From: Kalaharituber pfeilii
Taxonomy: Eukaryota; Ascomycota; Pezizomycetes; Pezizales; Pezizaceae
Direction of reading: 5' to 3'
Length of the DNA: 64,000 nucleotides
Assembly (NCBI GenBank): GCA_015179045.1
Contig: WHUZ01000088.1
Span: 124,001 to 188,000 of the forward strand
The notes under the pieces were generated by a model. It did not search any database, was not told the DNA's origin, and saw only the letters and a program-made list of their open reading frames with translations. Position 1 is the first letter of the stretch; each line of letters opens with the position of its first letter. Below are positions 6,050-62,343 of the stretch, one piece after another. A program made the position numbers and the translations under genes.

Positions 6050-6750
6050 CGACTCGCCGGAGTGCAGGTGGTGCGGCAAAGCCCTAGAGAACACCAACCA
6101 CATACTCAACGACTGCGAAGTGTGGAGGCGAAAGTGGCCCGGGGGCCAGACAGATCTGAGGGCCCCACCAAAACCCGAAAAGGAAGGGGAAGGAGCAGAA
6201 CTACAAAGGAGGACGGAAAGGGGAAGGAGAGGGATGTGGAGGAGATGGACATGACTGCTTGATTGTCTGGGGGATATTTGGGTATTCGTGCTTGATTGTT
6301 CTCATGGGGCATTGGGCTCTCGCTTTGTGTTTCCTCCGCATCACCGAAGTAGTGGTATCTTTGTGTCTTTTTACAAGGGGTCGAATGTGTAGGTAGTTGC
6401 ACAGGTGCCTGTCTCCGGGCCATAAGGACTTCGGTCCAGGGACCCTGCCATGGCGAACAGCTGCAAGCGGGGTTACGTGAAATAAAAAAAAAAAAAAAAA
6501 AAAAAAAAGGGGAAGGAGACAAAGTGGCGGAGCTACTGAAGTGGGCAGGGCGGGATTAGACAGGGGACTTCTACCTTGACACTTCTATTTCCGTCTCATT
6601 TTAATTTCCGTCTATTATCATGCAATATTTTCGATGGAGGAGAGACTTCGACATTTTTCATTCCACTTCCATTCATGTACTTAACCTCGCCATAGCCCCC
6701 AGGGCGGCACGCGAGTAATGATATTAAAAAAAAAAAAAATAAAATAAAAT
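6050..6750 (+). mobile_element. LINE A copy, 5'-truncated, split by a family B insertion
   Basis: The coding remnant has ECRWCGKALENTNHILNDC (C-x2-C...H...C zinc finger) and WRRKWPGG, then the hairpin tail and A-rich end at 6685-6750. Both ends are flanked by the direct repeat AATGAGAACG (6040-6049 and 6751-6760). A family B element sits at 6231-6505; after it the LINE frame resumes with DKVAELLKWAGRD and stop. The order of events is therefore LINE A first, B second. Confidence 0.92.
6231..6505 (+). mobile_element. Family B element, longest copy in the window
   Basis: About 275 bp inserted in LINE A, flanked by AAAGGGGAAGGAGA (6217-6230 and 6506-6519). The last 90 bp hold the family B tail: CCTGTCTCCGGGCC, GGACCCTGCCATGGCGAACA, GCTGCAAGCGGGGTTACGTG, then poly(A). 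No open frame of note and no obvious Pol III A and B boxes. It could be a SINE or the 3' untranslated end of an unseen LINE. Confidence 0.85.
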
Positions 6751-6883
6751 AATGAGAACGTAGCAAACGAACCTTCAAGTTGCCGATCTTTTCGCACTGC
6801 ATATCTGTAGGTACGTAGTCAAATTGTAGCAAACAAACACTTCCCCAGTTCCAACTGCACCTCTTACGTCGTATCCCGCCTTG

Positions 6884-7240
6884 TAGTGAGCGGCACGAGC
6901 CGAGCCAGCTCGAGCTCGACTGACCTTGAGCTCGAGCTCAAACGAGCCAAGATCATGCTTGTGTTTTTCTTGATAGCTCGCTAAAATGCTTAGCCAGTGC
7001 AAGGTTTCATAAACTGTAAATACCTAATATAGTACTAATTAGAGACTTGGAGCTCATTCTGACCTACCAACAACTTCGAAATGCACAATTTAACTGATAG
7101 TAGTGAGAAAGATGAAAATTTAGCTTAGTTTAGTTTAGTTTGTCAATATTATGGATATAATCAATCCAGGCTCGAGCTCATGCCACGCCAGCTCGAGCTC
7201 ACCCTCCAGCTCGGCTCGAGCTAGCTCGTGCCGCTCACTA
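6884..7240. mobile_element. hAT-type miniature element, copy 1 (357 bp)
   Basis: Ends are TAGTGAGCGGCACGAGC and its complement GCTCGTGCCGCTCACTA. An exact 8-bp duplication CCGCCTTG flanks it (6876-6883 and 7241-7248). An 8-bp duplication plus ends fitting YARNG is the hAT pattern. The ends are built of repeated GAGCTCGAGCT motifs that make strong inverted repeats; the middle is AT-rich with no transposase. Other copies: 35039-35331 and 61469-61542. Confidence 0.9.
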
Positions 7241-7544
7241 CCGCCTTGGCCATTCAAACTGATGCTGGGTCTAAACTATCTGATACGACCAACTGCAACC
7301 AAACAGGGCCTTATAATTTCCGAACTGGCCTACGCCTTGCCCCACTGTTAGTCTCGTAGCAAACGACACTAGGAGGGCTGACAACCCCAGTGGAAAGGAA
7401 TTGCACAATGTGCCTATGCGCTGAAAATAATAGTGTTCTTTGATACGAACAATGCAACAAGTGTGGCAGAAGTGGATGGCCTGAGGACTACTACAAAATC
7501 CTGTCACCAGACTCCTTTCAGAGTGCGTTCAACCTTACAGCTAC

Positions 7545-8255
7545 GACTGTGCTGAATTTAACAGGTATGGCAGGCCTCGCTCTACGGCGGGAGATGTGGT
7601 AGAGTGAGCTGAATTGAACGGGTACGGCAGGCCTTCCTCGATAGTGGATGATGAGTTGCATTTCACAGGTATGGAAGGTCTCTCTTGACAACGCAAGAGG
7701 TGGCAGAATGAGCCGAATTTGACCGGTATGACAGGTCCTACACGGTGTGAGATATGGCAGAATGAGCTCAATTTCATAGGTATGGAATATCTCCCTTGAG
7801 AGCCCGAGAGGTGGCAGAATGAGCTGAATTTGACCGATATGACAGGTCCGATATCAAGCCTGCCTCCGGGCTTTGAGGGTTTAGACCCAGGGGCCCTGCC
7901 ATGGCGAACAGCTGCACGCGGGGTCACGTGATAAAAATTAAAAATAAAAGACAGGTCCTATACGGTGGCACGGGATATGGCAGAATAAGCTCAATTTAAC
8001 AAGTATGACAGTCTTCTTGAGGGCAGGAGATGTAGCACAATGAGCCGAATTTGACAGCTATGTCAGGTCCCATACGACGGCCCGAGATATGGCAGAATGA
8101 GCTCAATTTAACACTTATATCAGGTCCTATACAACTATACAAGATGTGGCAACAAGAGCTGAATTTGACAGGTATGCACAGCGTTTGACAGGTATGCACA
8201 GCAGCCCTCGACGGCGCGCGATGAGGGAACATGAGCTCAATTCCGTCACTTCTTT
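7545..8255. repeat. minisatellite, about 57-bp unit, split by retroelements
   Basis: About a dozen diverged units with the core GAATTTGACAGGTATGRCAG and a second part GAGATATGGCAGAATGAGCT. Family B (7850-7949) and LINE A (8244-8422) interrupt the array, and its units supply their target duplications. No coding potential seen. Confidence 0.75.
7850..7949 (+). mobile_element. Family B copy in minisatellite
   Basis: Starts near GATATCAAGCCTGCCTCCGG and ends GCGGGGTCACGTGATAAAAA with an A-rich tail. Flanked by GACAGGTCC (7841-7849 and 7950-7958). Confidence 0.85.
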
Positions 8256-8422
8256 TCACAACCCATGTAACTATACCTCCTCCGGGCTTCGAGGGCTTGC
8301 CCAGGGACCCTGCCATGGCCACGTGCTACAAGCGGGGTTATGTGATTTAAAAAAAAAAAACTATACCTCGCCATAGCCCACAGGGCGGCAAGCGAGTAAT
8401 GATGTTAAAAAAAAAAAAAAAA
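8244..8422 (+). mobile_element. LINE A 3' end, itself split by family B
   Basis: Short 5'-truncated copy: about 35 bp of 3' untranslated DNA, then the hairpin and poly(A). Target duplication GAGCTCAATTC (8233-8243 and 8423-8433). A family B copy lies inside at 8280-8358. Confidence 0.88.
8280..8358 (+). mobile_element. Family B copy nested in LINE A
   Basis: Contains GGGCTTCGAGGGCTTGCCCA, GGACCCTGCCATGGCC and GCGGGGTTATGTGATTTAAA. Target duplication AACTATACCTC (8269-8279 and 8359-8369). Confidence 0.88.
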
Positions 8423-8529
8423 GAGCTCAATTCAACAGCTACAGGTTGCTCGAGGGTTGAATCTGCGGCGGGATAAGAACATGTGGAGGCAGTAGCATCA
8501 TAGATGATGACATGCAATGGTGGAATGAT

Positions 8530-8602
8530 TTTTTTTTTTTTTTTTTTTTATATATCAGTTCTCGCATGCCGCCCAATGGGCTATGGCGAGGTTTTATTTC
8601 AG
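8530..8602 (-). mobile_element. LINE A hairpin-only micro-insertion
   Basis: 73 bp made of poly(T), the complement of the 30-nt hairpin and about 10 more bases. Flanked by ATGGTGGAATGAT (8517-8529 and 8603-8615). Confidence 0.9.
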
Positions 8603-8775
8603 ATGGTGGAATGATAAGAGGGCATCTGTATATATATTATAGACCAGGATAGCTAGTTTTTAATGAATAAACAATTGATTTGTCAAACATGATATTATGG
8701 CATGGTAGAATGAAATCTGCGTAAGCACGAGACGCGCGAGTAGCCGACTACTACTAATTCAGGTCACACTTGAGG

Positions 8776-8930
8776 TTTTTTTTTTTGATCTTTTTTTATA
8801 TATCATTACTCGCTTGCCGCCCTGTGGGCTATGGCGAGGTCTAGTTACATGAAATGTAGAATAAGTCAAATAAGGAGAAAGGAAAATAAAATAAGATAAC
8901 GGAAGAAGTATTTGTCGAAACATGACATCC
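8776..8930 (-). mobile_element. LINE A 3' end fragment
   Basis: T-rich tract, hairpin complement (8806-8840) and about 90 bp of LINE A 3' untranslated sequence. The far boundary is not defined and no target duplication was found. Confidence 0.7.
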
Positions 8931-10024: not shown

Positions 10025-10079
10025 CTTTTTTTTTTTTTTTTTCACGTGACCCCCATGCAGCTGTTCGCCATGGCAGGGC
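10025..10079 (-). mobile_element. Family B tail-only micro-insertion
   Basis: 55 bp: poly(T), then TTCACGTGACCCCCATGCAG and CTGTTCGCCATGGCAGGGC. Flanked by GAAGATACATGAT (10012-10024 and 10080-10092). Confidence 0.92.
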
Positions 10080-14686: not shown

Positions 14687-14812
14687 CCTTTGTCTTTATG
14701 GTTTTATATGCTATTTATTTTTCCGTTTATTATTCTGCATGTATCTACACCCTCGCCGTAGCCTACAAGGCGGTATGCGAGTAATGAAATAAAAAAAAAA
14801 AAAAAAAAAATT
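14687..14812 (+). mobile_element. LINE A 3' end, 5'-truncated
   Basis: About 65 bp of 3' untranslated DNA, hairpin 14752-14781 with the alternative inner stem GCCT/AGGC, then poly(A). Target duplication TGTCTCAAACC (14676-14686 and 14813-14823). Confidence 0.9.
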
Positions 14813-15928: not shown

Positions 15929-16466
15929 TTTTTTTTTTTTTTTTTTTTTTTCATTACTCGCATGCCGCCCTGTGGGCTATGGCGAGGTTTAGTTACATTA
16001 AGTATGAAAAACAGGACTAACGAAAACGCTAAAGGAAGTGCCTATAGAAAAATAGCTCTCGATGTGATCAATTTGGATGTGATGCCGCTAGTGTCTTCCT
16101 GCCCATTCCATCAGTTCCACCAATTTGTCTCTTTCCCCTTCTGATTTAGGAGGTGTCTGTAGATCTGCGCAACCTCCCGGCCATTTTCGCTTCCATACTT
16201 CATACTCGTTGAGTATGTGAACTGTGTTTTCCATTGCCTTGCCGCACCATCTGCACTCCGGGCCGTCCGCCTTCCCGATCTGATGTCTCCATTGTCGTAG
16301 GCCTTTGTTTCCCAGTATGCCGGCGAGGGTGGCGATGGCCGCCCTTGACCCTAGGCGTTGTAGTGGGCGGTAGTTCAGCTTAAGTCTGTTGCGTTCGCTT
16401 GCTCTTCGCTCTCTCACGCGCTGGCGCATGTCCCCTTCCGTGATTACCTCGTCTTGGTATTGTAGA
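15929..16466 (-). mobile_element. LINE A copy, 5'-truncated
   Basis: Poly(T), hairpin complement, then an ORF end on the minus strand: LQYQDEVITEGDMRQRV, RLGSRAAIATLAGILGNKGL, ECRWCGKAMENTVHIL and LVELMEWAGRH before stop. It is the RNase H tail and zinc-finger part. Target duplication GTTAGGAC (15921-15928 and 16467-16474). Confidence 0.9.
16088..16466 (-). pseudogene. LINE A RNase H end and zinc finger
   Basis: Open frame of about 125 codons in the LINE copy. ECRWCGKAMENTVHILNEY gives C-x2-C and H, but the last Cys of the finger is Tyr here. KWPGG follows, the family hallmark. The start is set by the truncation, so there is no genuine start codon. Confidence 0.85.
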
Positions 16467-16499: not shown

Positions 16500-17380
16500 T
16501 TCTGTAGTCTCCCTTGCAACTATTTGCCATGGCAGTGCATACCCTGAGATGACACAGGAGTGCTATAAATGACACAGATTTTATTTGGTCATCTGGCTAC
16601 ATTGCACAGTATGGTGGAATTTCCTCTATGATAAGCATGCGAAAATATGCAGGGCCTTCCTTAACCATCGCATTACCGAGCGCTCGAGTTGAGTACATAG
16701 TCTAGCGGCAAATCCGTGCTGGAAGGCGATAAAATGACATTTAGGCAGAGAAAATATCGCAGTGTTATACGAATTCCTTTGTCTTCATATTCACACGTAA
16801 TTTGTGCTCGTGTGCTCTCGATCAAGGTGAGCGTAAGGCCAACTAATGAATGAACTAGCTATTTTTGTGACCTTGAATCACAATAGCTGAGGTACTGCTG
16901 CGTTTCATAACTTTCCAGGGCTGACCGAGTTACGACTGCTGACGACGGCCTTGCCGTGAGGACTCAGGCTATCTAATGTACTCTATGTGATCATACTCAC
17001 CGAATGACTGTGTCACCTTTATGATTATTGCTAATTTTGCATAAATGACCGTGCAGTTAACTTACCAATTATCTCATATTTCTGATCTTGTGCAATCTAC
17101 AGAGTACTGGTGAAGAGTGAGCGAAAGCATGATAAATACAAGATTTGCCAACTGTCGGGCATTCTTTCCCCTACTGAGCATCCAAGGGGCTGCATAGTGT
17201 ATTTAAATATTATGTCATCTCTGCAAGTTAGCCTTTCTTTTTTTGGGAAGGGTGGCAGGCAGGGCGGGAGTTAACTTTCCGGCGCTGCACACATACATTA
17301 CTAGATAAGAAGTACTCATACTTGAGAGGCTCTTTTTGTCCAACTTCTTCTAACTTTCCCGTTCATCATCCTATGCTTCT
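16500..17380. other. unassigned DNA
   Basis: A degraded family B tail (CTTGCAACTATTTGCCATGG) lies at 16511-16535. No gene or other repeat seen. Confidence 0.35.
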
Positions 17381-17600: not shown

Positions 17601-18492
17601 AATCGAGGACGAGGGGTGGAACTCCGTCTACACTGACGGGAGCAGGATAGATTACAAGACAGGCCTAGGCACCTACGCAAAAGACACCTCTACTTCCACA
17701 TACCTAGGGGAACAGACTACTGTCAATGATGCAGAACTCATTGCCATGAGCGAAGCATTACGCAATCAAGCTGGGGAACTCCTGATCATAACCGACTCTA
17801 AGGTTTCGATATCCAAGCTCCTAAAGATCGCCCAGGGAGAGCCCACCCACAAAGGACCGGCAAAACTGGTTAGAGACGCCTGGAAAGCGAGAACAGACCG
17901 AGGTGACTGGGACGTTGCAGTGATTGTGGGTCAAGTCCCATATAGGAGTCAAAGGGAACACCGAGGCAGACACAGCTGCGAAAATAGGCACATGCCTCCC
18001 CTACCAAGATGAAACCATAACAGAAGATGGGATACGACAAACCTCGAGACATCAGCGCGCCACAGAGAGAAACCGGCTAGGGCTCAGCTACCGTCCCTTG
18101 ACAAGACTTGGAAGTCGACACATAGCCACACTAGCAGGAATACTGGGCGGCAAGTTACTACGAAAATGGCAGTACGAAATCGGGAAAGCAGACAGCCCAG
18201 AGTGTCGATGGTGTGGGGAGGAGGAGGAGACTACTGAACATGTGCTCACTAGGTGCAGGACATGGAAACGAAAGTGGCCAGGAGGCATGCAAGACTTGGT
18301 CACTCCTCCGAAGAGCAAGGACACAGACCCACTTAGAGACATCTTGGAGTGGGCAGGGGCATAGGAGACACACAGGATCTTTTCTTATTCCTTTTCTTCT
18401 ACCTTCATATGTATCTAATCTTATGTAACTAATCTCGCCATAGCCCCTAGGGCGGCACGCGAGTAATGATATAAAAAAAAAAAAAAAAAAAA
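17601..18492 (+). mobile_element. LINE A copy, 5'-truncated in RNase H
   Basis: Flanked by the exact 14-bp repeat TTTGCCTCATACAA (17587-17600 and 18493-18506). Holds RNase H, zinc finger, 3' untranslated region, hairpin (18428-18457) and poly(A). One frameshift splits the ORF near 17925. Confidence 0.95.
17620..18364 (+). pseudogene. LINE A RNase H and zinc finger (frameshifted)
   Basis: Begins inside RNase H at VYTDGSRIDYKTGLGTY (first Asp), then TVNDAELIAMSEAL (Glu), LLIITDSKVSISKL (Asp). A frameshift near 17925 moves to VKSHIGVKGNTEADTAAKIG (last Asp). The finger is ECRWCGEEEETTEHVLTRC and the end KWPGGMQDLVTPPKS...ILEWAGA. All four RNase H acids are present, so the copy is young apart from the frameshift. 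Confidence 0.88.
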
Positions 18493-19826: not shown

Positions 19827-20200
19827 ATGGAGCCTTTTACACCCGAAATTCGCTATCAACTCGAGCTATATATTCAATCTCGGGATCATACAAATAGATA
19901 TCAAATGGAACCTCAGAAGTTATGTGAAATCCGAATTTTCTGTCGTGATCCAGAACGGCCCGTGTCTTCAGCAGCTGAGAATAATGTTAAAACTCTTGCT
20001 AAGGTAAGTATAACCTATAATGAGATATTTTAATAAGATATTGACAAATTAGAAATTTTTTATTAATGAGGATGGCGTTCTAATGCGCAAAGCGAATCCT
20101 CCCTAAAACGAATACCATCGTGAGGTTATTATAGAAGATCGAGCATTTGACATTATTCAAGATGTTCATTGCAATCTTGAAGCTGTTTTTCCCTGCCATG
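19827..20200 (+). pseudogene. integrase-like (H2C2 zinc-binding region?) transposase fragment
   Basis: Exon 19827-20003 encodes MEPFTPEIRYQLELYIQSRD and more, ends ...KTLAK at donor GTAAGT. A 50-nt AT-rich intron is likely, and the frame resumes with FFINEDGVLMRKANPP, then EVIIEDRAFDIIQDVHCNLE. The second part is like the segment before the H2C2 knuckle of integrase-type proteins (hydrophobic VI..E.AFDII..VH). One AAA to TAA change makes a stop, and a family B insertion plus minisatellite removes the rest. The family call is weak. Confidence 0.45.
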
Positions 20201-20249
20201 GCGAACAGCTACAAGCGGGGTCACGTGAAAGGAAAAAAAAAAAAAAAAA
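20191..20249 (+). mobile_element. Family B tail-only micro-insertion
   Basis: 59 bp from CCCTGCCATGGCGAACAGCT to poly(A). Target duplication AGCTGTTTTT (20181-20190 and 20250-20259). Confidence 0.92.
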
Positions 20250-20535: not shown

Positions 20536-20666
20536 ATAGTGGATGTGTGGATACGCGAGTGTGTGTGTGTGAGTTTGAGAGGGTGAATTGTAGGTAGAAT
20601 GAGAAAATTCAAATTCTGAGTGGCCCGGGCCAGTCACGAACCAGCGTTCCATTGAGTAGTCCGGGC

Positions 20667-20725
20667 TCTGCCTTGGCGAACAGCTGCACGCGGGGTCATG
20701 TGATATAAAAAAAAAAAAAAAAAAA
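20667..20725 (+). mobile_element. Family B tail-only micro-insertion
   Basis: 59 bp: TCTGCCTTGGCGAACAGCTG, CACGCGGGGTCATGTGATAT, poly(A). Target duplication GAGTAGTCCGGGC (20654-20666 and 20726-20738), inside the right end of the inverted-repeat transposon. Confidence 0.93.
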
Positions 20726-22452: not shown

Positions 22453-22568
22453 TATTTTTTTTTTTTTTTATATCAATACTCGCGTGCCGCCCTACGGGCT
22501 ATAGCGAGGGTTTATTAAAGGAAACGAAAAGAAACTAACTAAGTTTAAGTACATGATGCCCGCGGTTC
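22453..22568 (-). mobile_element. A2 3' end insertion
   Basis: Poly(T), hairpin complement (about 22483-22512) and the A2 3' untranslated motif GATGCCCGCGG. Target duplication GCACTACTACTACTA (22438-22452 and 22569-22583). Confidence 0.88.
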
Positions 22569-23279: not shown

Positions 23280-23338
23280 TTTTTTTTTTTTTTTTTTTTT
23301 TTTTTATATATCAATACTCGCAGGCCGCCCGGTGGGCT
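23280..23338 (-). mobile_element. LINE A insertion truncated inside the hairpin
   Basis: 26 T plus 33 bases; on the minus strand it starts AGCCCACCGGGCGGCC, so the outer 5' strand of the stem is missing. Target duplication AATGAAACCCGGA/AATGAAACTCGGA (23267-23279 and 23339-23351). Confidence 0.88.
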
Positions 23339-23569
23339 AATGAAACTCGGAGGAAGGTAGTTGCAGATGAGTGTGTACGAGTCAGGAAATAGGCAGGTCC
23401 CAGTACATGGCTCTTGGTTTTGACATTTTACTCACATCATGTATGAGCACCGCGGGCACCACCTGTATCTATCTATTATTTTTTCCTTTCTTTCTAATAA
23501 ACCCTCGCCATAGCCCATAGGGCGGCATGCGAGTACTAATAGAAAAAAAAAAAAAAAAAAAAAAACAAA

Positions 23570-24935: not shown

Positions 24936-25531
24936 CTGGTTAGGAAGAGTTGGGAGAACCGAGTAGCGAGAGGGGACCTAGACCTGGCAGTGATATGGGT
25001 TAAAAGCCACAAGGGGGTGAAAGGGAACACGGAGGCAGACTGGGCGGCCAAAATCGGCACATCGCTACAATACGAAGACGAGACCGTAACAGAAGCAGGA
25101 TTAAGACAAGGCTATAAGGCACTGCGAGCCACGGAGAGAAACCAGGCAGGCTTAAATTACCGGCCCTTGCAAATCGCCGACCGGAGGAAGTATCTCTCGA
25201 CGCTGGCGGGGATCCTGGGAAACAAAGGACTGAAAGAATGGAGATACCACATAGGGAAGGCCGAATCACCGGAATGCCGATGGTGCGGGGAGGCCCCGGA
25301 AAACTGGGAACATGTACGGAAAGACTGCAAGGCGTGGGCTAGGAAATGCGGGGGGGCGGAAGGTATAAGACAGATTGATAAGGGAGTAAACATACGGGAG
25401 ATCTTGGAATGGGCACGGGGAGAATAGATGAGAGTGACGCATATATTTCACTTATTTTATGTATTAAAATATCGCCATAGCCCATAGGGCGGCATGCGAT
25501 TAATGAAAGAAAAAAAAAAAAAAAAAAAAAA
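24936..25531 (+). mobile_element. LINE A copy nested in A2 ORF1
   Basis: Target duplication ACCCGCTGCTAG/ACCCGCTGATAG (24924-24935 and 25532-25543). It holds the end of RNase H, the zinc finger, hairpin 25471-25500 with ATCGC/GCGAT, and poly(A). Confidence 0.93.
24937..25427 (+). pseudogene. LINE A RNase H end and zinc finger
   Basis: Clean frame from LVRKSWENRVARGDLDLAVI through KSHKGVKGNTEADWAAKIG (last RNase H Asp) to ECRWCGEAPENWEHVRKDC and ILEWARGE stop. No frameshift in about 160 codons, so a young copy. The start is set by 5' truncation. Confidence 0.88.
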
Positions 25532-26167
25532 ACCCGCTGATAGCACCCCTGCTAGCACATACATGACAAGCCAACCAACCCTTGCGCTGACTCCCGCTCC
25601 CACGCCCACGCCCACACCGATGACCAATCCCCCTCACGCCCCCAAAGCCAAATCCCCATCCCATCCAAACAACCCTGGTGCTACCACCCCACAGTTCGGC
25701 ATCATAGTACACGGGATAGCCCTGAGATAGGAACTCGGGAATGTCCAAAGATGGATGGAGGCAAAAAACAAAGACCTAGGAAGAATTTTGGGGATACGAT
25801 GGCTAAGAAAAAAGACGACACTAGTCGAGGAGGGAAAACAGACGAGCTCGGTAGTCATGTACCTGGAGAGACCTACTGAAGTAGACAAGGTGAGGCTAGG
25901 AGGAAGATGGCTCAGAGCATGCCAGTACAAGTGGGACAGAGGACGAAGATAGGATAAGGAAGCCTCCTCATGTACCGACATGACCTGGAAAACTGTTATT
26001 GTTGTTGTCACTTCCCCTTCACATAGGATGTTCTTGGGATTTCTACTCCCATATCTAACTTTTCTTTTATTTCATATGTAACTAGATATCGCTATAGCCC
26101 TTAGGGCGGCAGGCGACTGCTGATATATATCTAAAAAAAAAAAAAAAAAAAAAAAAAGGGGGATACT

Positions 26168-39504: not shown

Positions 39505-39563
39505 GCCCTGCCATGGCGAACAGGTGCACGCGGGGTCACGTGACAAGAAAATAATAATTTTTT
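39505..39563 (+). mobile_element. Family B tail-only micro-insertion in LINE A
   Basis: 59 bp: GCCCTGCCATGGCGAACAGG, GCGGGGTCACGTGACAAG and an AT-rich end. Target duplication TTGTGCGGGTC (39494-39504 and 39564-39574). Confidence 0.9.
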
Positions 39564-40142: not shown

Positions 40143-40210
40143 TTTTTTTTTTTTTTTTTTTTAAATCACATAACCCCGCTTGTAGCACGTGGCCATGGCA
40201 GGGTCCGTGG
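40143..40210 (-). mobile_element. Family B tail-only micro-insertion
   Basis: 68 bp: poly(T), AAATCACATAACCCCGCTTG, TAGCACGTGGCCATGGCAGG. Target duplication CAGAGGTT (40135-40142 and 40211-40218). In the same host frame. Confidence 0.9.
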
Positions 40211-40561: not shown

Positions 40562-40631
40562 GGTTTTTTTTTTTTTGTTTTTTTTTTTATATTTCATTAC
40601 TCGCATGCCGCCCTGTGGGCTATGGCGAGGT
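40562..40631 (-). mobile_element. LINE A hairpin-only micro-insertion
   Basis: 70 bp: T-rich tract and hairpin complement ending at GGCGAGGT. Target duplication ACAAGGCAGA (40552-40561 and 40632-40641). In the same host frame; its 5' end lies right at the hairpin. Confidence 0.92.
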
Positions 40632-40752: not shown

Positions 40753-41333
40753 TTTTTTTTCTTTTTTTTTTTAATTTCATTACTCGCATGCCGCCTAACA
40801 GGCTATGGCGAGAAATTAGATACATGATGGGTAAATAAAAGAGAAAGAGAATGAGGATATGTAGAGGGGTAAAGAATAACAAAATTGACGAATAAAGGAA
40901 ATTACTCTGCCGCCCAGTCTAAAACCTCCGCCAGCATGTCTCCTTCCCCTTCTGCCTTCGTTGGCTGCTTCAACCCCATCTCCCCTCTCGGTAGTCTCTT
41001 ATTCCATGCCTCACACTCATTCATAATGTGCGCAAAGTTCTCGAGGGCTTTGCCACACCACCTACACTCCGGTGATTCGTCCTTCCCTATCTGATGTCTC
41101 CTCTGCCGCAGACCTTTGTTCCTGCGAGCGTGGCTACCCTCCTCCTCTTCCCCAGGTATTCCAGTGGCCGGTACGACAGCTGTAGCCTTTTCCTCTCACC
41201 GGCCCTGCATGCTTTGGCGTATTGCCGCATGCCTGCCTCGGTAACCGCCTCATCCTGGTATTGCAGTACCGTGCCGATCTTCGCCGCCATATCTGCCCTG
41301 GTGTTGCCTTCCACGCCTTTGTGTGCCTTGACC
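40753..41333 (-). mobile_element. LINE A copy, 5'-truncated
   Basis: Target duplication CAAGGGCGTGC (40742-40752 and 41334-41344). Minus strand: VKAHKGVEGNTRADMAAKIG, AVTEAGMRQYAKACRAGERK, YRPLEYLGKRRRVATLA, then a frame break, zinc-finger remains and hairpin 40783-40812 (inner stem GCCT/AGGC). The T-rich tract is interrupted. Confidence 0.92.
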
Positions 41334-42060: not shown

Positions 42061-42983
42061 GCCAAGCCAAAACGCAGCCACCTAAGCGACCAAGAGGCCG
42101 AAAAAATTGCCTCAACCACCACAACCGGTACACCAGCAGGCAGCGCGCCCACCTAAATCCCCCCACCAAAACCGTCGAACCCCCGACGCGCCTTCCTTTT
42201 TGTTTTTCCTAACTTAGGGCATTCGCTGGCTGAGAAAGAAGACAACACTGGTCGAGGAAGGAAAGAAGACCAGTTCGGTGGTATTATATCTGGAGAAGCC
42301 GACAGAGGTGGAGAAAGTGAGACTTGGAGGACGTTGGATGAGAGTGGACCAGTACGAATGGGACAGGGGACGGAAGTAGGACGGACGGACTGGCCCTCTG
42401 AGTTTTAGATATTTCCCTTTCCCGCATCACGTAGGACTACCGCGGGCAACACATGTAGCTAGTGGGTGCGATCGTTTTGACTTCTTTTACTTTCATTAAT
42501 AAAGACCCTCGCCATAGCCCGTAGGGCGGCATGCGAGTAATGAAATAAAAAAAAAAAAAAAAAGAACCCCCGACGCACGCCCCAAGCAACCACAACAAAA
42601 CCAAGAAGGTCTCAACCCCCCCGACGAAACCCGATGTCCACACCAAAACCGGCATCGTTGTACACGGCGTAGCCCTGAGGAAGGATTTGGGCAACGTACG
42701 ACGATGGCTGTCCTCGGACAACAAAGACCTGAAGAAGATCGTCGGGATCCGTTGGCTTAGAAAGAAGGACGCGCTAATCGGAGAAGGGAAAAAGACCAGC
42801 TCCATAGCGGTATACTTGGAGGACCAACAGAACATTGACAAGGTGCGACTCGGAGGAAGATGGGCCAGTACGAGGCTGAAAGAGGACGGAGATGAGTTAG
42901 ACGGCTGGCCGCTCCCCTCGCAATACAATGTGAACCGCGGGCATCATGTGCTCAAATTTAGTTAGTTTTTCTTTTCCTTTTTT
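42061..42983 (+). mobile_element. A2 element, 5'-truncated, with nested A2
   Basis: ORF1 C-terminal part: proline-rich segment, then (after the nested copy) GIVVHGVALRKDLGNVRRWL, KIVGIRWLRKKDALIGEGKK and KVRLGGRWASTRLKEDG. The 3' motif GTGAACCGCGGGCATCATG follows. Its own hairpin is missing; another tail in opposite orientation abuts at 42983. Confidence 0.75.
42190..42563 (+). mobile_element. A2 copy nested in A2 ORF1
   Basis: Target duplication GAACCCCCGACGC (42177-42189 and 42564-42576). Holds GIRWLRKKTTLVEEGKKTSS, KVRLGGRWMRVDQYEWDRGR and stop, then ACTACCGCGGGCAACACATG, TTAATAAAGACC, hairpin and poly(A). Confidence 0.93.
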
Positions 42984-43140
42984 TTTTTTTTTATATCAAT
43001 ACTCGCATGCCGCCCTGAGGGCTATAACGAGAATCCAAGATAACAAATACAAAGAAAGTAGTAACAGAACTAGTAAACGAATCTCACAGAATGCACTGCC
43101 CTCATTATTGTAGATGAAAACAAACGGACAAAAACGAAGG
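42984..43140 (-). mobile_element. LINE A-type tail fragment
   Basis: Poly(T), hairpin complement (43003-43032; one G-U pair in the outer stem) and some 3' untranslated DNA. Boundaries uncertain. Confidence 0.6.
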
Positions 43141-43636: not shown

Positions 43637-44098
43637 TTTTTTTTTTTTTTTTTTTTTTTTTTATTTCATTACTCGCATGCCGCCCTATGGGCTATGGCGA
43701 GGGTTTAATTTAAGCTAAGAACAACAAAGGAAATAAGTCTTAAGTACATAATGCCCGCGGTTTACATGGTATTGCGGGGGGAGCGGTCAGTAGGTCCGAA
43801 TCATCTCCCTCCTCTTTCAGTCTCGTACTGGCTCGCCTTGAGCCATCTCCCTCCGTGTCGCACCTTGTCCATGTCTTGTTTCTCTTCCAAGTAAACTACT
43901 ATGGAACTTGTCTTTTTACCCTCTCCGACGAGTATGTCTTTTTTCCTTAACCATCGGATTCCGATGATTTTCTTCATGTCTTTGTTGTCTTCGGACAGCC
44001 ATCTCCTGACATTGCCGAGATCCCTTCTCAAGGCTATGCCATGTATGACGAGTCCGACTTTGTTTTCATGAGCAGGCTTTGTCGGAGGTTTGTCTAAG
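43637..44098 (-). mobile_element. A2 copy, 5'-truncated
   Basis: Target duplication GGTGGCGGAGCTGAT (43622-43636 and 44099-44113). Minus strand: VIHGIALRRDLGNVRRWLSE, KIIGIRWLRKKDILVGEGKK, KVRHGGRWLKASQYETERGG and stop; then AACCGCGGGCATTATG, hairpin and poly(A). Confidence 0.93.
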
Positions 44099-44263: not shown

Positions 44264-44576
44264 TTGAAGGGGAAGGAGACAAGCTAAGGGAGATATTAGA
44301 GTGGGCAGGGCGAGACTAGTGGTCGTTCACTTTCCTTCACGTCGGAGATGTCTACTATTGTTGTTATTTTTGTTGTTATTCGCATTCCCACTTCCCCTTC
44401 ACACATGAATTTCCGGGGATCTTTACCTACACTTAGCTTTCTCTATATTCTGTAACTAAACATCGCCATAGCCCTTAGGGCGGCATGCGATTAATGAAAT
44501 TAAAAAAAAAAAAATGTAACTAAACATCGCCATAGCCCTTAGGGCGGCAAGCGATTAATGATATAAAAAAAAAAAA
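44264..44576 (+). mobile_element. LINE A 3' end with tandemly doubled tail
   Basis: Target duplication TTATCTGCTCGTT (44251-44263 and 44577-44589). Contains the ORF end (LREILEWAGRD), 3' untranslated DNA, then two tails in a row, 44451-44514 and 44515-44576. Each has TGTAACTAAACATCGCC, a hairpin (44462-44491, 44526-44555) and poly(A). Confidence 0.93.
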
Positions 44577-44818
44577 TTATCTGCTCGTTGGTGTTGGTGT
44601 GGAGCAGGCTCCGGACCCGGTACTGGTTCGACAAATTGTAGCACTGCATGCAAAAAAGGTCGTTGGTTCTGGCATTGCAATCCCTGGGTCGGTTCCTTTA
44701 AGTGTATTTTTTATATATATCATTATCGCATGCCGCCTTAAAGGCTATGGCGATTTAAGTACATAAGGAATGAAAGAAAAAAATGACAGGTAGTTACATG
44801 TGGGGCCCGCGGTGCTCA

Positions 44819-45410
44819 GTTTTTTTTTTTTTTTTTTTTTATATCATTAATCGCATGCCCCCCTATGGGCTATGGTGATGTCTAGATACAGTTGCTAATA
44901 AAAGAAAAGCAGATGAAACTGAAATGAATAAAATGAAAGGGTGAAAGGTAGATGAAATAGCTAGAGTTGATGCCCGTTCCTGAACTCCGTCACTGTCCTG
45001 CCCATTCCAGTATGTCTAGCAATCTATCCCTGTCTTCGTCTGACCCGTTTCGTTCGTCGCTTCTCAGGCGGCATAGGTCCTCGACGCCTCTCGGGCATCT
45101 CTGTTTCTATGCCCTGCACTGAGTCAGTCAAGAAGTCACGCTTTCGAGGGGAAAGAATTAATTGATTGCAGAAGTAATCTCTAGTATGTACAGGACCCGT
45201 GCCCTATATGTCCCTCGCAGCAACGTTCACAATTGCCACAGTAAAAACTTTTCAAAACGCCACAGTCAACCATCAGTCAAACCGCCGGCCTATAATCCCT
45301 CCATGTTGGTGCTAGGATTACGCCGTCGGTTCAACAGTCAGGACGTGCTGGGTGGTCTCGATGTCTTCACCGCAACAGCGACATTCCGGGCTGTGCGGTG
45401 CTCAATGGTG
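44819..45410 (-). mobile_element. LINE A copy nested in A2, itself interrupted
   Basis: Flanked by a 21-bp direct repeat (44798-44818 and 45411-45431, core GGGGCCCGCGGTGCTCA). Zinc finger SPECRCCGEDIETTQHVLT at about 45400-45345 is separated from CRAWKQRCPRG and LLDILEWAGQ by about 225 bp of foreign DNA (45118-45343). Hairpin and poly(T) at 44821-44881. Confidence 0.85.
45118..45343. mobile_element. unclassified insertion in LINE A zinc finger
   Basis: About 225 bp that splits the LINE frame between HVLT and CRAW. Edges CTGACTG and TTGACTGACTCAG suggest a short duplication. No inverted ends or ORF recognised. Confidence 0.5.
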
Positions 45411-45999: not shown

Positions 46000-46576
46000 C
46001 CACGTGAAGTCGATGGCTGGACTGTTGGGTGGCAAAGGCTTGAGAGCATGGCGTTACAAAATAGACAAAGCCGACGGACCAGAGTGCCGATGGTGCGGGG
46101 AAAGTGAAGAGATGACGGCTCACCTACTGGAAGAATACAGGGTATGGCGAAGATTCTGGCCGGGGGGCGGGGAGGACATCATGACTCCCTCTAAAGGAAC
46201 CGACAAAGATAAGGATCCATAAATGACGCTGATGAGACGGTTTGACGAATAAAAGAGGGGGGGGGGACTTCCTTACGTTACTTCACTATCTCACTTTCAA
46301 AGATGAAGGGGAGGGTCTCCGGGGAGTGATGGGAATCTTGGAATGGGCGAGGGGTTAGTCCCGGGGATAGATGTGCGATGGATTTACTTCTATTTTTTCG
46401 TACTTGTACTTTGTTTTGATGTAACTAGGCCTCGCCATAGCCCACAGGGCGGCACGCGAGTAATGATATATATATATATATATAAAAAATCTCACTTTCA
46501 CACTATCTCACTTCTTTAATTTCCTTACAATGTACGTATAATTCGCCATAGCCCATAGGGCGGCACGCGAACAATG

Positions 46577-46608
<32 letters not shown>
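46000..46608 (+). mobile_element. LINE A copy with a nested LINE A
   Basis: SMAGLLGGKGLRAWRYKIDK, ECRWCGESEEMTAHLLEEY, FWPGGGEDIMTPSKG and DKDP, then a G-rich 3' region. After the nested copy (46300-46488) its own hairpin follows at 46542-46571 with the compensated outer stem TTCGC/GCGAA, then poly(A). No target duplication found. Confidence 0.85.
46300..46488 (+). mobile_element. LINE A 3' end nested in LINE A
   Basis: Target duplication ATCTCACTTTCA (46288-46299 and 46489-46500). ORF end GEGLRGVMGILEWARG, 3' untranslated DNA nearly the same as the copy at 58760, hairpin, then (AT)n instead of poly(A). Confidence 0.92.
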
Positions 46609-48366: not shown

Positions 48367-48424
48367 TCTCGCCGTAGTCCTTAGGGCTGTATGCGAGTAA
48401 TATATTAAAAAAAAAAAAAAAAAG
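48331..48424 (+). mobile_element. LINE A 3' end in the duplicated gene remnant
   Basis: About 40 bp of 3' untranslated DNA, slightly decayed hairpin (48368-48397) and poly(A). Imperfect target duplication CCCTATCATC/CCCCATCATC (48320-48329 and 48425-48434). Copy 1 lacks it. Confidence 0.82.
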
Positions 48425-48960: not shown

Positions 48961-48992
<32 letters not shown>

Positions 48993-49078
48993 CATTAATC
49001 GCATGCCGCCCTGTGGGCTATGGCGATGTTTGAAGTACAGAAAGGTAAGACATAGAGTGAAATAAGCGATATGAGAAA
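48961..49078 (-). mobile_element. LINE A 3' end
   Basis: Poly(T), hairpin 48998-49027 (ATCGC/GCGAT) and about 50 bp of 3' untranslated DNA. Target duplication ACCATATGGT/ACCGTATGGT (48949-48958, 49079-49088). Confidence 0.85.
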
Positions 49079-49131: not shown

Positions 49132-49310
49132 TTTTTTTTTTTTTTTTTTTTTTTTATATCAGTACTCGCATACCGCCCTAAGGGCTACGGCGAGGGTTTT
49201 TGCGGTATGCGAGTGCTGATATAAAAAAAAAAAAAAAAAAAAAAAAAAATACGTATTAGAGGCGACTTGTGAACTGACCTGTCTATGCAAAACCATACGG
49301 TTTTCTCATA
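49132..49310 (-). mobile_element. fold-back LINE A tail insertion (palindrome)
   Basis: Starts like a hairpin-only insertion (poly(T), ATATCAGTACTCGCATACCG, to GGCGAGGG). After TTTTT the same tail follows inverted (GCGGTATGCGAGTGCTGATA, poly(A)), and then an inverted copy of the 62 bp left of the site (49249-49310 complements 49070-49131). Then the target CCTCTAATACGTAT repeats (49118-49131 and 49311-49324). The arms differ at one base. Confidence 0.93.
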
Positions 49311-49386: not shown

Positions 49387-49657
49387 TTTTTTGTTTGTTT
49401 TTTTATATCAGTACTCGCATGCCGCCCTAAGGGGATTGGCAAGGTATTTAGTTACACAGGAAATAAAAGGAAATAAAATAACTAATTAACATGTAGATGC
49501 CCACAGATCTCTCTGGTGATGTAGGTGATGAAGAATGTAAGTTACAGGTGGGGCGCGCGGCGTGTGATGATGAGCGGGTGACAAGGTCAACAAGTCAACA
49601 AGTCCTATCTCCTCCGCCTGTCCGACTCGTACTTGCATACCCTCAACCATTTCCCTC
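49387..49657 (-). mobile_element. A2 3' part
   Basis: Interrupted T tract, decayed hairpin, TGCCCACAG-type motif and ORF1 end (RVCKYESDRRRR). Target duplication AGTAACACATGTT (49374-49386 and 49658-49670). Confidence 0.9.
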
Positions 49658-57819: not shown

Positions 57820-58195
57820 TAATATTTCATATGTAGCCTGTACTATCCTAATGATGGGAGGACCTTTTAGCTTTTGGTATAATGTTGGGCATTTCTAAGC
57901 TGGGGAAAGATAAAGATATTGTATTATAATAATAATCACTAATTCCTGTATCAAACATTATCCTACTATCTCATGAGCAGTGTCCTGATTGCAACCTCTT
58001 TGGTTCGGAACCTACATTTCAATGCCACATCAACGTAGAAAATGGTATGACAGTAGAGCAGCAGTAGAGAGATTGATTGTTGACACTGAATGTAACAAAA
58101 TAACAAGATGGTATATATCCAGAGGTATATTAAAAATTGTAAGTCAGAATACCTGTTGTCAATTGTCAAATCGCAATCATAAGTTTGATCTAGTA
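57820..58195. other. 3' flank of the secreted-protein gene
   Basis: AT-rich; no gene or repeat recognised. Confidence 0.35.
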
Positions 58196-58205
58196 GTTGA
58201 GCTAA

Positions 58206-58885
58206 TCGTTGAGGCTGCAGCGCCAAAACAAGAAAAGGAACCAACACACAAAGGGGCAACACAGCGAGTAAGGGAGGCTTGGGACCGGAGAAACGAACGG
58301 GGCGACCTTGACATAGCGGTAATGTGGGTCAAAGGTCATAAAGGAATCCCAGGCAACACCGAAGCAGATCGAGCAGCCAAGGTTGGTACACAGCTGCCAT
58401 ATCAAAACGAGATTGTCACGATGAAACAAGAGGCCAAAGCAAGGAGAGCGGCCGAAAGAAACAGACTGCATATGTCATATAGGCCACTACGCAGACTAGG
58501 CAATAGGGTTGCAACGCTAGTTGGCATCCTTGGAGGCAAGGGCCTCCGGCGCTGGAAATTCAAGGTCGGCACAGCTGACAGCCCGGAATGCCGGTGGTGC
58601 GGCGAGGCTGAAGAAACGACCCTTCACATATTGTCTCAATGTAGAGTCTGGAAGCAGAGATGCCCAAGGGGTGAGGATGGATTGTGCAGACCCTTGGGTG
58701 ACCAAGATGAAGGGGAGGGCCTTCGGGGAGTGATAGGAATTTTGGAATGGGCGAGGGGTTAGCCCCGGGGGATTTACTTCTATTTTTCCGTACTTGTACT
58801 TTGTTTGGATATAACTAGACCTCGCCATAGCCCATAGGGCGGCACGCGAGTATTGATATAAAAAAAAAAAAAAAGAAAAAAAGAA
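58206..58885 (+). mobile_element. LINE A copy, 5'-truncated
   Basis: RNase H end, zinc finger, 3' untranslated region, hairpin (58820-58849) and A-rich tail. The left edge is near 58206; no certain target duplication. Confidence 0.85.
58215..58762 (+). pseudogene. LINE A RNase H end and zinc finger
   Basis: Clean frame: EAWDRRNERGDLDIAVMWVK, HKGIPGNTEADRAAKVG (last RNase H Asp), MSYRPLRRLGNRVATLVGIL, ECRWCGEAEETTLHILSQC, KQRCPRGEDGLCRP, ILEWARG and stop. No frame break in about 180 codons. Confidence 0.88.
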
Positions 58886-59434: not shown

Positions 59435-59495
59435 TTTTTTTTTTTTTTTTATATCAGTACTCGCGTGCCGCCCTAGGGGCTATGGCGAGATTAGT
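59435..59495 (-). mobile_element. LINE A hairpin-only micro-insertion
   Basis: 61 bp: poly(T), ATATCAGTA, hairpin complement (CTCGCGTGCCGCC...GGCGAG) and six more bases. Exact 14-bp target duplication GGCCGTGTACTGTT (59421-59434 and 59496-59509). Confidence 0.95.
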
Positions 59496-59795: not shown

Positions 59796-59873
59796 CCCTC
59801 GCCATAACCCACAGGGCGGCGCGCGAGTAATGATATTAAAATAAAAAAAAATAAAAAAGAAAAAAAAGAAAAA
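59796..59873 (+). mobile_element. LINE A hairpin-only micro-insertion
   Basis: 78 bp: CC, then the hairpin and TAATGATATT, then a long interrupted A tail. Exact 13-bp target duplication GAGGGACCTTACA (59783-59795 and 59874-59886). Confidence 0.95.
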
Positions 59874-60990: not shown

Positions 60991-60999
60991 TTAAGCAAT

Positions 61000-61460
61000 G
61001 ACCGGGATGCTGGCGGCCATGTCGCTTAAGCGTGCTCACAGGTGCAGGGATATATATCGGAGTGCTAGAAGGAGTGCGACGAATCGCAAGGGTGTCAGGG
61101 TCAGCTGCACGTGTACGAGTACTGTACTGGCGAGTAGTATGTTGGTTGCCAGTATAGGACCGGAGCTGGAGGGTCTTGGGCGAGGGGTCCCGGGTTGGAT
61201 TATTACATAGTTGAGCGGCGATGTCGACATCTTCATAGTCGGCCGCGGCTAAGGAGTAAGAAATGTAGTATTGGCTATACACTCTACATCACTAGATAAG
61301 TTCAGCACGTTCTCCTTCGCCTTTGCTAAGACTGCAGCCCTACCGGCGAATAATAACGATAACCTCCTGAATCCGTCCATCGAGAGCTCTCCCGGCGTCA
61401 CGCCGCCCCCAGTATGGGAACTTCTACTGCAGTAATCCCAAAGTTCTGATCGAGGAGTGC
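61000..61460. other. unassigned DNA
   Basis: Several short frames on both strands, none recognised. Confidence 0.35.
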
Positions 61461-61468
61461 ATGCTTCT

Positions 61469-61542
61469 TAGTGAGCGGCACGAGCTAGCTCGAGCCGAGC
61501 TGGAGGGGGAGCTCGAGCTGGCTCGGCTCGTGCCGCTCACTA
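61469..61542. mobile_element. hAT-type miniature element, copy 3 (74 bp)
   Basis: Same ends as copies 1 and 2; exact 8-bp duplication ATGCTTCT (61461-61468 and 61543-61550). The left 54 bp equal the right end of copy 1 inverted, so it is little more than two ends joined. Confidence 0.93.
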
Positions 61543-61554
61543 ATGCTTCTTCTA

Positions 61555-61860
61555 ACGGAGCCATCCCAGAAGTATTTGCTGGGGTCGCTAAGAGCAAATA
61601 GGACGATGTGACCGCCGTACTAGATGACCAATCCTGGGAACAAAGTTTGTATGTGCAGACCTATGTTGGTAGGTTGTGCTTAGATATTCCGCTGGTCTGG
61701 TTCAAGGCTTGGTAGCAACTCTGGGTTCTTGAGTACTGCCACAGATGAAAATTGAGGTACGAGCGTGAACGGGCGTTGAATAAGTTGGATATGAAGAAAT
61801 ACAGTTTCATTTTTCTATGGCCGTCATGAGGAAATTTGAGGGCCCGCAGAAGGGGAGCAC
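61555..61860. other. unassigned DNA
   Basis: No gene or repeat seen. Confidence 0.35.
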
Positions 61861-61869
61861 CGGAGGGCC

Positions 61870-61873
<4 letters not shown>

Positions 61874-61908
<35 letters not shown>

Positions 61909-62343
61909 TTCAATACTCGCATACCGCCTATCAGGCTACGGCGAGGTGTTAAGTACAGAATGTGTGAATCGCAGATGATAGATAAGAAAAGAGCGTAAAG
62001 GAAAAATAATGGTCGAATAAAAAACAGCTAACTCGCTGCCCAGTCCAGCACCTCGGCCAGTGTCATCCCCTTCTTCTCCCCCTCTTCCTTCCCCTTCCCC
62101 TTCCCTTTCTCCACTCCTATTGGCATCTTCAGCCCCGTCTCTCCTCCCGGTAGTCTCTTCTTCCATGCCTCGCACTCTCTCGATATATGTCTGTAATTCT
62201 CGAGGGCCTTTCAACACCACCTGCACTCCGGTGAATCCTCCTTCCCTATCTGGTGTCTCCATTGTCTCAATCCTTTGTCCCCATGATGCCTGCGAGTGTG
62301 GCTACCCTCCTTCTGGTCCCAGGTATTCGAGTGGCCTGTACGT
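61874..62343 (-). mobile_element. LINE A copy, 5'-truncated
   Basis: Target duplication GGAGGGCCAAGA/GGAGGCCCAAGA (61862-61873 and 62344-62355). Minus strand: zinc finger SPECRWC, LENYRHISRECEAWKKRLPG, GMTLAEVLDWAAS and stop; hairpin 61916-61945 with GCCT/AGGC; poly(A) of more than 30. Confidence 0.92.

What the first reader, a model, noticed from the sequence alone, without database searches (positions are those of the whole stretch)
6685..61945. A 30-nt 3' hairpin shared by all LINE A-type insertions, with compensatory changes in both stems
Over 30 insertions end in a 30-nt element: outer stem of 5 bp, inner stem of 4 bp, short loop, then TAATGA and poly(A). Stem changes are matched. Outer stem: CTCGC/GCGAG (most), ATCGC/GCGAT (25471, 38139, 44462, 44526, 44725, 48998), TTCGC/GCGAA (46542), CTCGT/ACGAG (29557). 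Inner stem: GCCC/GGGC or GCCT/AGGC (14752, 38817, 40783, 44725, 61916). The copy at 44725 has both changed. This is strong evidence for a selected RNA structure, probably the site where the reverse transcriptase grips its template, as known for the 3' stem-loop of eel UnaL2. I do not know this fungal hairpin from the literature.
Basis: partly seen in the sequence, partly recalled or inferred. Interest (0 to 1): 0.9.

Follow-up and report, generated by a model that had tools for sequence, protein, structure and literature searches.

The report
Truffle jumping-gene tail hairpin
Self-copying genes of a desert truffle end in a small RNA hairpin that selection appears to keep folded, very likely the handle by which their copying enzyme holds its template, and many copies consist of little more than that hairpin.

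Summary
In detail: 38 copies in the window, 6,676 genome-wide within three mismatches, control 0. Twenty of 20 LINE 3' ends fetched by their ORF alone have the element 34-108 nt after the stop (19 intact). Four of nine pairs (1-30, 4-27, 5-26, 13-17) co-vary, three of them repeatedly on an ORF tree. The other five do not, and versions mismatched at 2-29 and 11-19 have spread.

Beyond the finding: (i) 26 of 102 insertions with target-site duplications (two of the 26 not clean) start 0-2 nt before the hairpin: hairpin plus poly(A) only. (ii) A second LINE group (RT 27-29% identical) has its own 3' hairpin sharing GC-CAU/GCAN-GC and the same spike, 22 of 34. (iii) Of 90 A-tailed, TSD-flanked insertions, 87 carry one of the two hairpins.

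Best reading: a stringent-type LINE tail gripped by its own reverse transcriptase, which often lets go once the hairpin is copied. Binding and retrotransposition were not tested.

The parts
6686..6721 (+). hairpin A (30 nt) + TAATGA
8367..8402 (+). hairpin A
   Evidence: TSD 11 bp
8555..8590 (-). hairpin A; insert starts 12 nt upstream by TSD
8803..8838 (-). hairpin A
14752..14787 (+). hairpin A, T13-A17 and G7.T23
15951..15986 (-). hairpin A after a LINE ORF match
18434..18469 (+). hairpin A, 78 nt after a LINE ORF match
   Evidence: TSD 14 bp
22473..22508 (-). hairpin A
   Evidence: TSD 15 bp
23311..23346 (-). hairpin A, apparently cut inside the 5' arm
23504..23539 (+). hairpin A
25471..25506 (+). 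hairpin A, A1-T30, after a LINE ORF match
26088..26123 (+). hairpin A, decayed (A1.C30)
29557..29592 (+). hairpin A, T5-A26 and A7-T23
29717..29752 (-). hairpin A
   Evidence: TSD 14 bp
33788..33823 (-). hairpin A, T12.G18 and G4.T27
36453..36488 (-). hairpin A, apparently cut inside the 5' arm
   Evidence: TSD 11 bp
38139..38174 (+). hairpin A, A1-T30; 3' end of the LINE with ORF 37436-38053
   Evidence: TSD 12 bp
38811..38846 (-). hairpin A, T13-A17
38951..38986 (+). hairpin-only insertion (gap 0, TSD 14 bp)
40594..40629 (-). hairpin A; TSD 10 bp, gap 2
40777..40812 (-). hairpin A, T13-A17
   Evidence: TSD 11 bp
42508..42543 (+). hairpin A
   Evidence: TSD 13 bp
42996..43031 (-). hairpin A, T5.G26
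43666..43701 (-). hairpin A
   Evidence: TSD 15 bp
44462..44497 (+). hairpin A, A1-T30
44526..44561 (+). hairpin A, A1-T30, starting 64 nt after the start of the previous copy
   Evidence: TSD 13 bp
44719..44754 (-). hairpin A, A1-T30 and T13-A17 both changed
44844..44879 (-). hairpin A, decayed
   Evidence: TSD 21 bp
46431..46466 (+). hairpin A
46542..46577 (+). hairpin A, T1-A30
48368..48403 (+). hairpin A, decayed, G7.T23
48992..49027 (-). hairpin A, A1-T30
49159..49194 (-). hairpin A, G7.T23
   Evidence: TSD 14 bp
49408..49443 (-). hairpin A, decayed
   Evidence: TSD 13 bp
58821..58856 (+). hairpin A after LINE ORF 57989-58762
59454..59489 (-). near hairpin-only insertion (gap 6, TSD 14 bp)
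59798..59833 (+). hairpin-only insertion (gap 2, TSD 13 bp)
61910..61945 (-). hairpin A, T13-A17 and G7.T23
28952..29500 (+). LINE A ORF end (zf-RVT match below the Pfam cut-off)
37436..38053 (+). LINE A ORF end: RNase H, then a Cys/His region (zf-RVT below the cut-off)
57989..58762 (+). LINE A ORF end: RNase H; Cys/His motif by eye
3083..3994 (-). LINE B ORF end: RNase H
4000..5016 (-). LINE B reverse transcriptase
2113..2150 (-). hairpin B, 935 nt past the LINE B ORF match
6443..6480 (+). hairpin B
   Evidence: TSD 14 bp
7894..7931 (+). hairpin B
   Evidence: TSD 11 bp
8308..8345 (+). hairpin B
10041..10078 (-). hairpin B only (gap 1, TSD 13 bp)
16500..16537 (-). weak match to hairpin B (12 differences)
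20191..20228 (+). hairpin B only (gap 0, TSD 11 bp)
20666..20703 (+). hairpin B only (gap 0, TSD 12 bp)
34563..34600 (-). hairpin B only (gap 0, TSD 13 bp)
39506..39543 (+). hairpin B
39934..39971 (-). hairpin B only (gap 2, TSD 12 bp)
40166..40203 (-). hairpin B

Best explanation
The element is the 3' terminal recognition hairpin of a large, diverse group of non-LTR retrotransposons (LINE A: endonuclease, reverse transcriptase, RNase H, Cys/His region) in the desert truffle Kalaharituber pfeilii. As RNA it forms a 5-bp outer stem, an asymmetric internal loop (5' CAUA, 3' GGCAN) and a 4-bp inner stem with a 3-nt loop, then UAAUGA and poly(A). The LINE's own reverse transcriptase holds the transcript by this hairpin and starts target-primed reverse transcription in the A tail beside it (stringent-type recognition). 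SHOWN: position at LINE 3' ends, conservation, covariation of four pairs, target-site duplications, rarity of A-tailed TSD-flanked insertions without a hairpin, the spike of hairpin-only insertions, a second LINE group with a matching hairpin. INFERRED: that the structure acts as RNA, that the LINE protein binds it, that the spike is drop-off during copying.
For: 20 of 20 LINE 3' ends fetched by their ORF have it (19 intact), 34-108 nt after the stop (20 of 151 matches, long ones, 71-95% identical to the query). Among 43 LINE ORF ends the hairpin is 82% identical on average, while the 50 nt before it are 63% against 59% for shuffled sequence; ORF identity is 41% at the median of the 38 better-covered rows. 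Covariation in 177 copies that were not anchors of a variant query: both sides changed at 1-30 in 41 (11.9 expected; 37 of the 41 are Watson-Crick), 13-17 in 26 (4.4), 5-26 in 8 (0.7) (no correction for kinship); without the 21 copies of L002-L008, which came in by similarity to 44400-44800, 30 (7.8), 23 (3.8) and 5 (0.35) of 156. Genome-wide, 4-27 is re-paired in 47 of 84 changed copies and 5-26 in 48 of 76, T5-A26 on 29 haplotypes. Tree of 63 rows: 1-30 is A-T in 32 and C-G in 31, none mismatched, six changes; four independent contrasts on supported branches, all matched. TSD of 11 bp or more in 102 of 233 copies (control 3); 26 of 102 start 0-2 nt before the hairpin. Of A-runs with TSD, 60 follow hairpin A, 27 hairpin B, 3 neither (controls 1, 2, 0). 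Hairpin B: same internal loop, same spike, on LINEs whose RT is 27-29% identical.
Against: Five of nine pairs show hardly any or no compensatory change; C2.A29 is carried by a supported LINE clade and A11.G19 by several separate insertions. At 4-27 the sample has A.C in 9 and A-T in 2 of 177, the tree has only two A-T rows, and the visible end of that output shows one or two of three contrasts matched (cut). Of 100 listed copies with G or T at position 1 only six are T-A and none G-C. Many tree branches are weak, the bootstrap had not settled, and no single pair reaches significance by the sign test on supported branches. Exchange of whole tails between LINEs could move matched states without new mutations. 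The changes at 4-27, 5-26 and 13-17 are all of C-to-T type. One species only; no RNA or protein data.
Confidence: 0.8

Rival explanations
1. Hairpin-only insertions are not aborted LINE copies but copies of a short RNA that begins at the hairpin: a trimmed or processed stub of LINE RNA that the protein protects, or an independent ultrashort retroposon.
For: 5' ends fall within about 3 nt; A1-T30 hairpins seem rarer in hairpin-only inserts than in long ones (1 of 18 against 19 of 60, p 0.03; but 1 of 17 against 14 of 52, p 0.09, without the loci fetched by similarity), as if only some LINEs made them; in B they are the majority (22 of 34).
Against: The inserted bases before the hairpin (mostly C or AC) are what the copies generally have there; several hairpin haplotypes take part. 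No promoter or separate gene was looked for.
Confidence: 0.4
2. The hairpin serves 3' end formation, stability or export of LINE RNA rather than template recognition.
For: It lies beside the poly(A) tail, and a TGTA motif, possibly part of a polyadenylation signal (recalled), is common just upstream: 121 of 237 copies in the last 20 nt against 22 of 237 in the 20 before.
Against: Ordinary polyadenylated RNAs would then also be copied, yet 87 of 90 A-tailed TSD-flanked insertions carry a LINE hairpin; the spike ties the hairpin to the copying step.
Confidence: 0.15
3. No structural selection: a conserved sequence inherited or exchanged as a block; matched states are a few old haplotypes.
For: Five pairs do not co-vary; mismatched versions multiplied; exchange of tails is not excluded.
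Against: 1-30 switches state inside a supported eight-row clade (100/96) and on both sides each time; T5-A26 occurs on 29 haplotypes and A4-T27 with 15 loops; at 13-17 the single-step T.G is absent in 177 copies while T-A is in 26.
Confidence: 0.07

Closest known systems
UnaL2, ZfL2-1, ZfL2-2 (L2-clade LINEs, eel and zebrafish) 3' stem-loops
   Same: Short hairpin at the 3' end of a LINE, followed by a simple tail; the stem-loop is needed for retrotransposition, and ZfL2 ORF2 binds it through the region between endonuclease and RT (PMC4176376, abstract and passages).
   Different: There the terminal loop carries the specificity (GGAUA in UnaL2) and the UnaL2 tail is TGTAA repeats (PMC5135761, passages). 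Here the terminal loop varies, the internal loop is among the most conserved parts, the tail is poly(A), and no Rfam family matches.
Fungal LINE/SINE pairs: MgL/Mg-SINE (Magnaporthe), Tad1-24_BG/SINE2-1_BG (Blumeria)
   Same: Fungal LINEs whose 3' end is shared with short elements; a 3' stem-loop is asserted for Tad1 in fungi (PMC5135761; PMC3747384; passages).
   Different: Those partners are listed as tRNA-derived SINEs; here the short insertions have no body. Their hairpin sequences were not compared.
Monocot L1/SINE 3' hairpin
   Same: LINE and SINE 3' hairpin with compensatory changes in the stem (PMC3747384, passages).
   Different: Different clade and sequence; there the stem bases vary, here five of nine pairs are nearly fixed in sequence.

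Membership tests
Stringent-type LINE 3' tail | Hairpin at the 3' end of elements encoding endonuclease and RT | tested here: met
   20 of 20 ORF-anchored ends; L109 ORF2 has Exo_endo_phos_2, RVT_1, RNase_H
Stringent-type LINE 3' tail | Structure kept by compensatory change | tested here: inconclusive
   Seen for 4 of 9 pairs, hardly or not for 5
Stringent-type LINE 3' tail | Insertions without this tail are rare | tested here: met
   87 of 90 A-tailed insertions with TSD carry hairpin A or B (264 kb, regions mostly chosen around hairpin A)
Stringent-type LINE 3' tail | RT needs and binds the hairpin | not testable with these tools
   needs an assay
UnaL2 / L2-clade 3' stem-loop | GGAUA-type recognised terminal loop and short-repeat tail | tested here: not met
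   3-nt variable loop, poly(A) tail, no Rfam match
Tad1 clade | RT groups with Tad1-clade RTs | not tested
   No named Tad1 sequence was used; outside hits are unnamed or Chaetomium and Colletotrichum proteins
SINE | tRNA, 5S or 7SL-like body upstream of the LINE tail | tested here: not met
   Hairpin-only inserts start 0-2 nt before the hairpin by TSD

The most novel reading that the evidence does not exclude
Two LINE lineages of one fungus, with RTs only 27-29% identical, keep one recognition element: an internal loop, GC-CAU opposite GCAN-GC (a run of C.A, A.C and U.G opposites with a bulged free base), inside hairpins whose terminal loops and some stem pairs are free to change. Copying has an escape step like promoter escape: the enzyme is anchored by the hairpin, and leaving it is the main failure point, so the genome fills with insertions of about 40 nt that are hairpin and tail only.
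Probability: 0.45. Interest if true: 0.78.

Novelty: new variant of a known kind. Interest (0 to 1): 0.62.

Why it matters
How LINE enzymes choose their RNA is an open question (recalled). Here one genome supplies thousands of natural variants of a 30-nt candidate ligand, some tolerated and some re-paired, in many LINE lineages, plus a natural record of where copying stops. It makes two ideas directly testable: recognition through an internal loop rather than the terminal loop, and a fixed drop-off point at the edge of the anchor. A short, portable recognition tag would also interest those building RNA-templated gene insertion.

Tried and rejected
Rfam: nothing at gathering threshold in the window; permissive scans around two copies gave only weak matches far below the curated scores. 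The hairpin pattern gave 0 matches in the held viral and prokaryotic contigs. The genome has no relatives among those held, so no cross-species test was possible. DNA-level against RNA-level structure through G.U against A.C singles: left undecided, because CpG context and more change on the 5' arm confound it. C-to-T decay (RIP-like) as the sole cause of matched changes: rejected, since the main 1-30 change (C-G to A-T) needs two transversions and single-step states are rare at 13-17. The 4-nt pattern was my mis-sized query; it found 67 copies one base shorter. Position 1 = G or T: 114 copies, 100 listed; six of the listed are T-A, none G-C, the rest mostly have G or T at 30 (my reading of the list). 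Sign tests on single pairs stay above p 0.05 on supported branches; part of that output, for 2-29 and 4-27, was cut. Rows dropped: L001 (overlaps the window); from the trees L105 (hairpin partly deleted), element 189 (the ORF is flanking sequence) and rows with under 60 aligned residues or more than 170 nt from ORF match to hairpin; 4 of 237 copies too near a locus end for the TSD scan. In one search's short class two of 27 are not clean (L026 at 1322: a 24-nt TSD that looks like a duplicated stretch; window 36453: cut inside the hairpin). Of nine negative values, L019, L005 (two) and L016 look like real truncations inside the hairpin; the other five look like neighbouring hairpins matching each other. 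The A1-T30 contrast between short and long inserts weakened from p 0.03 to 0.09 when loci fetched by similarity were left out.

Full report
WHERE IT IS. The window is G000:C348:124001-188000 in a 78.0-Mb, 360-contig genome. Proteins of Kalaharituber pfeilii returned by a search with the LINE RT lie on contigs of 1,541,133, 210,946 and 450,430 bases. These equal contigs C2 and C3 and C308, so the genome is that desert truffle (inference from lengths).

THE OBSERVATION. A gapless scan finds 38 copies in the window, 18 on plus and 20 on minus, 32 with nine standard pairs; a gapped scan finds 40. In 289 kb no reversed sequence comes within 12 of 33 differences, while 172 real matches do. Genome-wide, 6,676 places match the 27 fixed bases with up to three mismatches; the reversed pattern gives 0.

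WHAT CARRIES IT. In the window the element lies 59-94 nt past the end of a LINE ORF match at 18434, 25471, 29557, 38139 and 58821. Of three of these ORFs scanned against Pfam, two have RNase H and one only a sub-threshold zf-RVT match. To avoid circularity I searched the genome with the ORF end alone and fetched 20 of its 151 matches, choosing long ones. All 20 have the element 34-108 nt after the stop codon, 19 intact and L105 with part of its 3' arm lost. L109 holds a longer element: a first ORF without Pfam match and an 1101-residue ORF2 with endonuclease, RT and RNase H domains, whose RT part matches L1 ORF2 and R2 proteins in the PDB. So this is a LINE tail. Among 43 ORF ends the hairpin is on average 82% identical while the 50 nt before it are 63% (shuffled 59%); ORF identity is 41% at the median among 38 rows.

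COVARIATION, AND ITS LIMITS. In 177 sampled copies that were not anchors of a variant query, corrected mutual information ranks 1-30, 13-17 and 5-26 first and 7-23 fifth. Both sides changed: 41 at 1-30 (11.9 expected), 26 at 13-17 (4.4), 8 at 5-26 (0.7), 3 at 4-27 (0.5), 7 at 7-23 (1.2) (no correction for kinship). Loci L002-L008 came in by similarity to a stretch with A1-T30 copies; without their 21 copies the numbers are 30 (7.8), 23 (3.8), 5 (0.35), 3 (0.6) and 7 (1.3) of 156. Whole-genome pattern searches list the copies with a changed 5' base at one pair, the other stem bases mostly held to consensus, and show the partner: re-paired in 1 of 55 at 2-29, 1 of 34 at 3-28 (31 are T.G), 47 of 84 at 4-27, 48 of 76 at 5-26 (19 T.G), 1 of 20 at 10-20, 0 of 29 at 12-18 (17 T.G) and 0 of 37 at 11-19 (18 T.G). 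The tallies for searches are my reading of the lists. So four pairs co-vary and five are nearly fixed in sequence. Mismatched versions are not dead: C2.A29 marks a supported clade (97/87) of LINEs with at least two upstream families, and A11.G19 sits in several separate insertions. Pairing at 2-29 and 11-19 is thus not strictly required.

REPEATED ORIGIN. On a tree of 63 ORF ends, 1-30 is A-T in 32 and C-G in 31 with no mismatch and at least six changes; 5-26 changes ten times and 13-17 five. Supported branches allow four independent contrasts at 1-30 (all matched), three at 5-26 (2.9 matched on average) and two at 13-17 (1.8); no pair reaches significance alone. For 4-27 the support from the tree is thin: four changes with two A-T rows in the 43-row tree, and the part that was not cut shows one or two of three contrasts matched. 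Inside one supported eight-row clade (100/96), four rows are A-T, one is C-G with T5-A26, one is A-T and two are C-G. T5-A26 occurs on 29 haplotypes and A4-T27 with 15 loop sequences. Rows with 4-27, 5-26, 2-29 and 11-19 variants were partly chosen for them; 1-30 and 13-17 were not criteria, though L002-L008 lean to A-T and the 20 ORF-fetched rows are kin of one A-T LINE. Many branches are weak, and tail exchange between LINEs would mimic some of this.

A FURTHER PAIR. Positions 7 and 23 are A and C in 155 of 177, A-T in 6, G.T in 6 and never G-C. A.C and G.U have similar geometry (recalled), so the internal loop may hold a wobble-type pair.

HAIRPIN-ONLY INSERTIONS. Target-site duplications of 11 bp or more flank 102 of 233 copies (reversed-flank control 3). 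With flanks swapped between copies the scan finds 5.8 per round, none in the short class. The insert's 5' end lies 0-2 nt before the hairpin in 26 of 102, two of them not clean, against 17 in the next 98 nt (Poisson p 6e-35); 17 of 82 in loci not chosen by variant and 16 of 73 in the window and L009-L028 alone. A detector using only the 3' part gives 25 of 103 at 0-3 nt (control 6) and about four real ends inside the hairpin. The inserted bases before the hairpin are mostly C or AC, as copies generally have there.

A SECOND HAIRPIN. Scanning A-runs of 12 or more in 264 kb showed a second tail, CCCTGCCATGGCGAACAGCTGCANGCGGGGTCACGTGA. It has 49 matches within 12 differences (control 0 up to 14), folds as six pairs, internal loop CAU/GCAN and three pairs, and 22 of 34 copies with TSD start 0-2 nt before it. 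It follows ORFs related to the LINE of window 3083-5016 by 114-213 nt in L015, L023 (twice) and, with only 31% identity, L014; in the window itself the distance is 935 nt. That LINE's RT is 27-29% and its RNase H end about 34% identical to LINE A. A and B share GC-CAU, GCAN-GC, and TGA followed mostly by TAT, TATT or AAT and poly(A). In B, 9-21 is T.G in 27 and T-A in 13 of 41. Of A-runs with TSD, 60 follow A, 27 follow B and 3 neither (controls 1, 2 and 0): little else seems to be copied. The sampled regions were mostly chosen around A, so A's share is inflated, but B against neither is not.

MECHANISM. Most likely the LINE protein holds the hairpin and starts copying in the adjacent A tail, as shown for zebrafish L2 LINEs (hairpin binding and need; PMC4176376, abstract and passages). 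The nearly fixed 3' bases and internal loop suggest sequence reading there; parts of the outer stem need mainly pairing. A stop just past the hairpin fits loss of the anchor once it becomes RNA:DNA hybrid; a protected short RNA is the main alternative. None of these steps was tested.

LITERATURE. Nine full-text searches were run. Stem-loops and compensatory changes at LINE 3' ends are known (PMC4176376, PMC5135761, PMC3747384; passages only), and fungal cases are listed. I met neither this hairpin nor a spike of hairpin-only insertions in the listings and passages that I saw. The Kalaharituber papers were seen as a listing alone.

Noticed in passing
sampled copies, last 20 nt before hairpin A: TGTA in 121 of 237 copies, against 22 of 237 in the 20 nt before. 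May be a polyadenylation signal or part of the tail.
   Followed up: partly
genome-wide: 67 copies with hairpin A one base shorter between the inner-stem arms.
   Followed up: no
44462-44561; L003, L004, L006: Hairpins in close tandem, as if one LINE tail had inserted beside another's A tail.
   Followed up: partly
L024:4644; window 10968 (-): TSD-flanked A-runs with only 3 and 7 other inserted bases: possible poly(A)-only insertions.
   Followed up: no
30887-30923 and 47090-47126 (+): Two decayed copies with one extra base, found only by the gapped search.
   Followed up: no
660-1220 (-) and 11386-12831 (-): Two other ORFs: the first without Pfam match, the second with a repeated ADSKRELEQKV coiled-coil-like stretch and a sub-threshold PF16454 match.
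   Followed up: no
one search hits P0005, P0006: Unnamed proteins from ENA contigs, 34-35% identical to the LINE A RT; the 3' ends of their contigs would be a first outside test of the hairpin.
   Followed up: no
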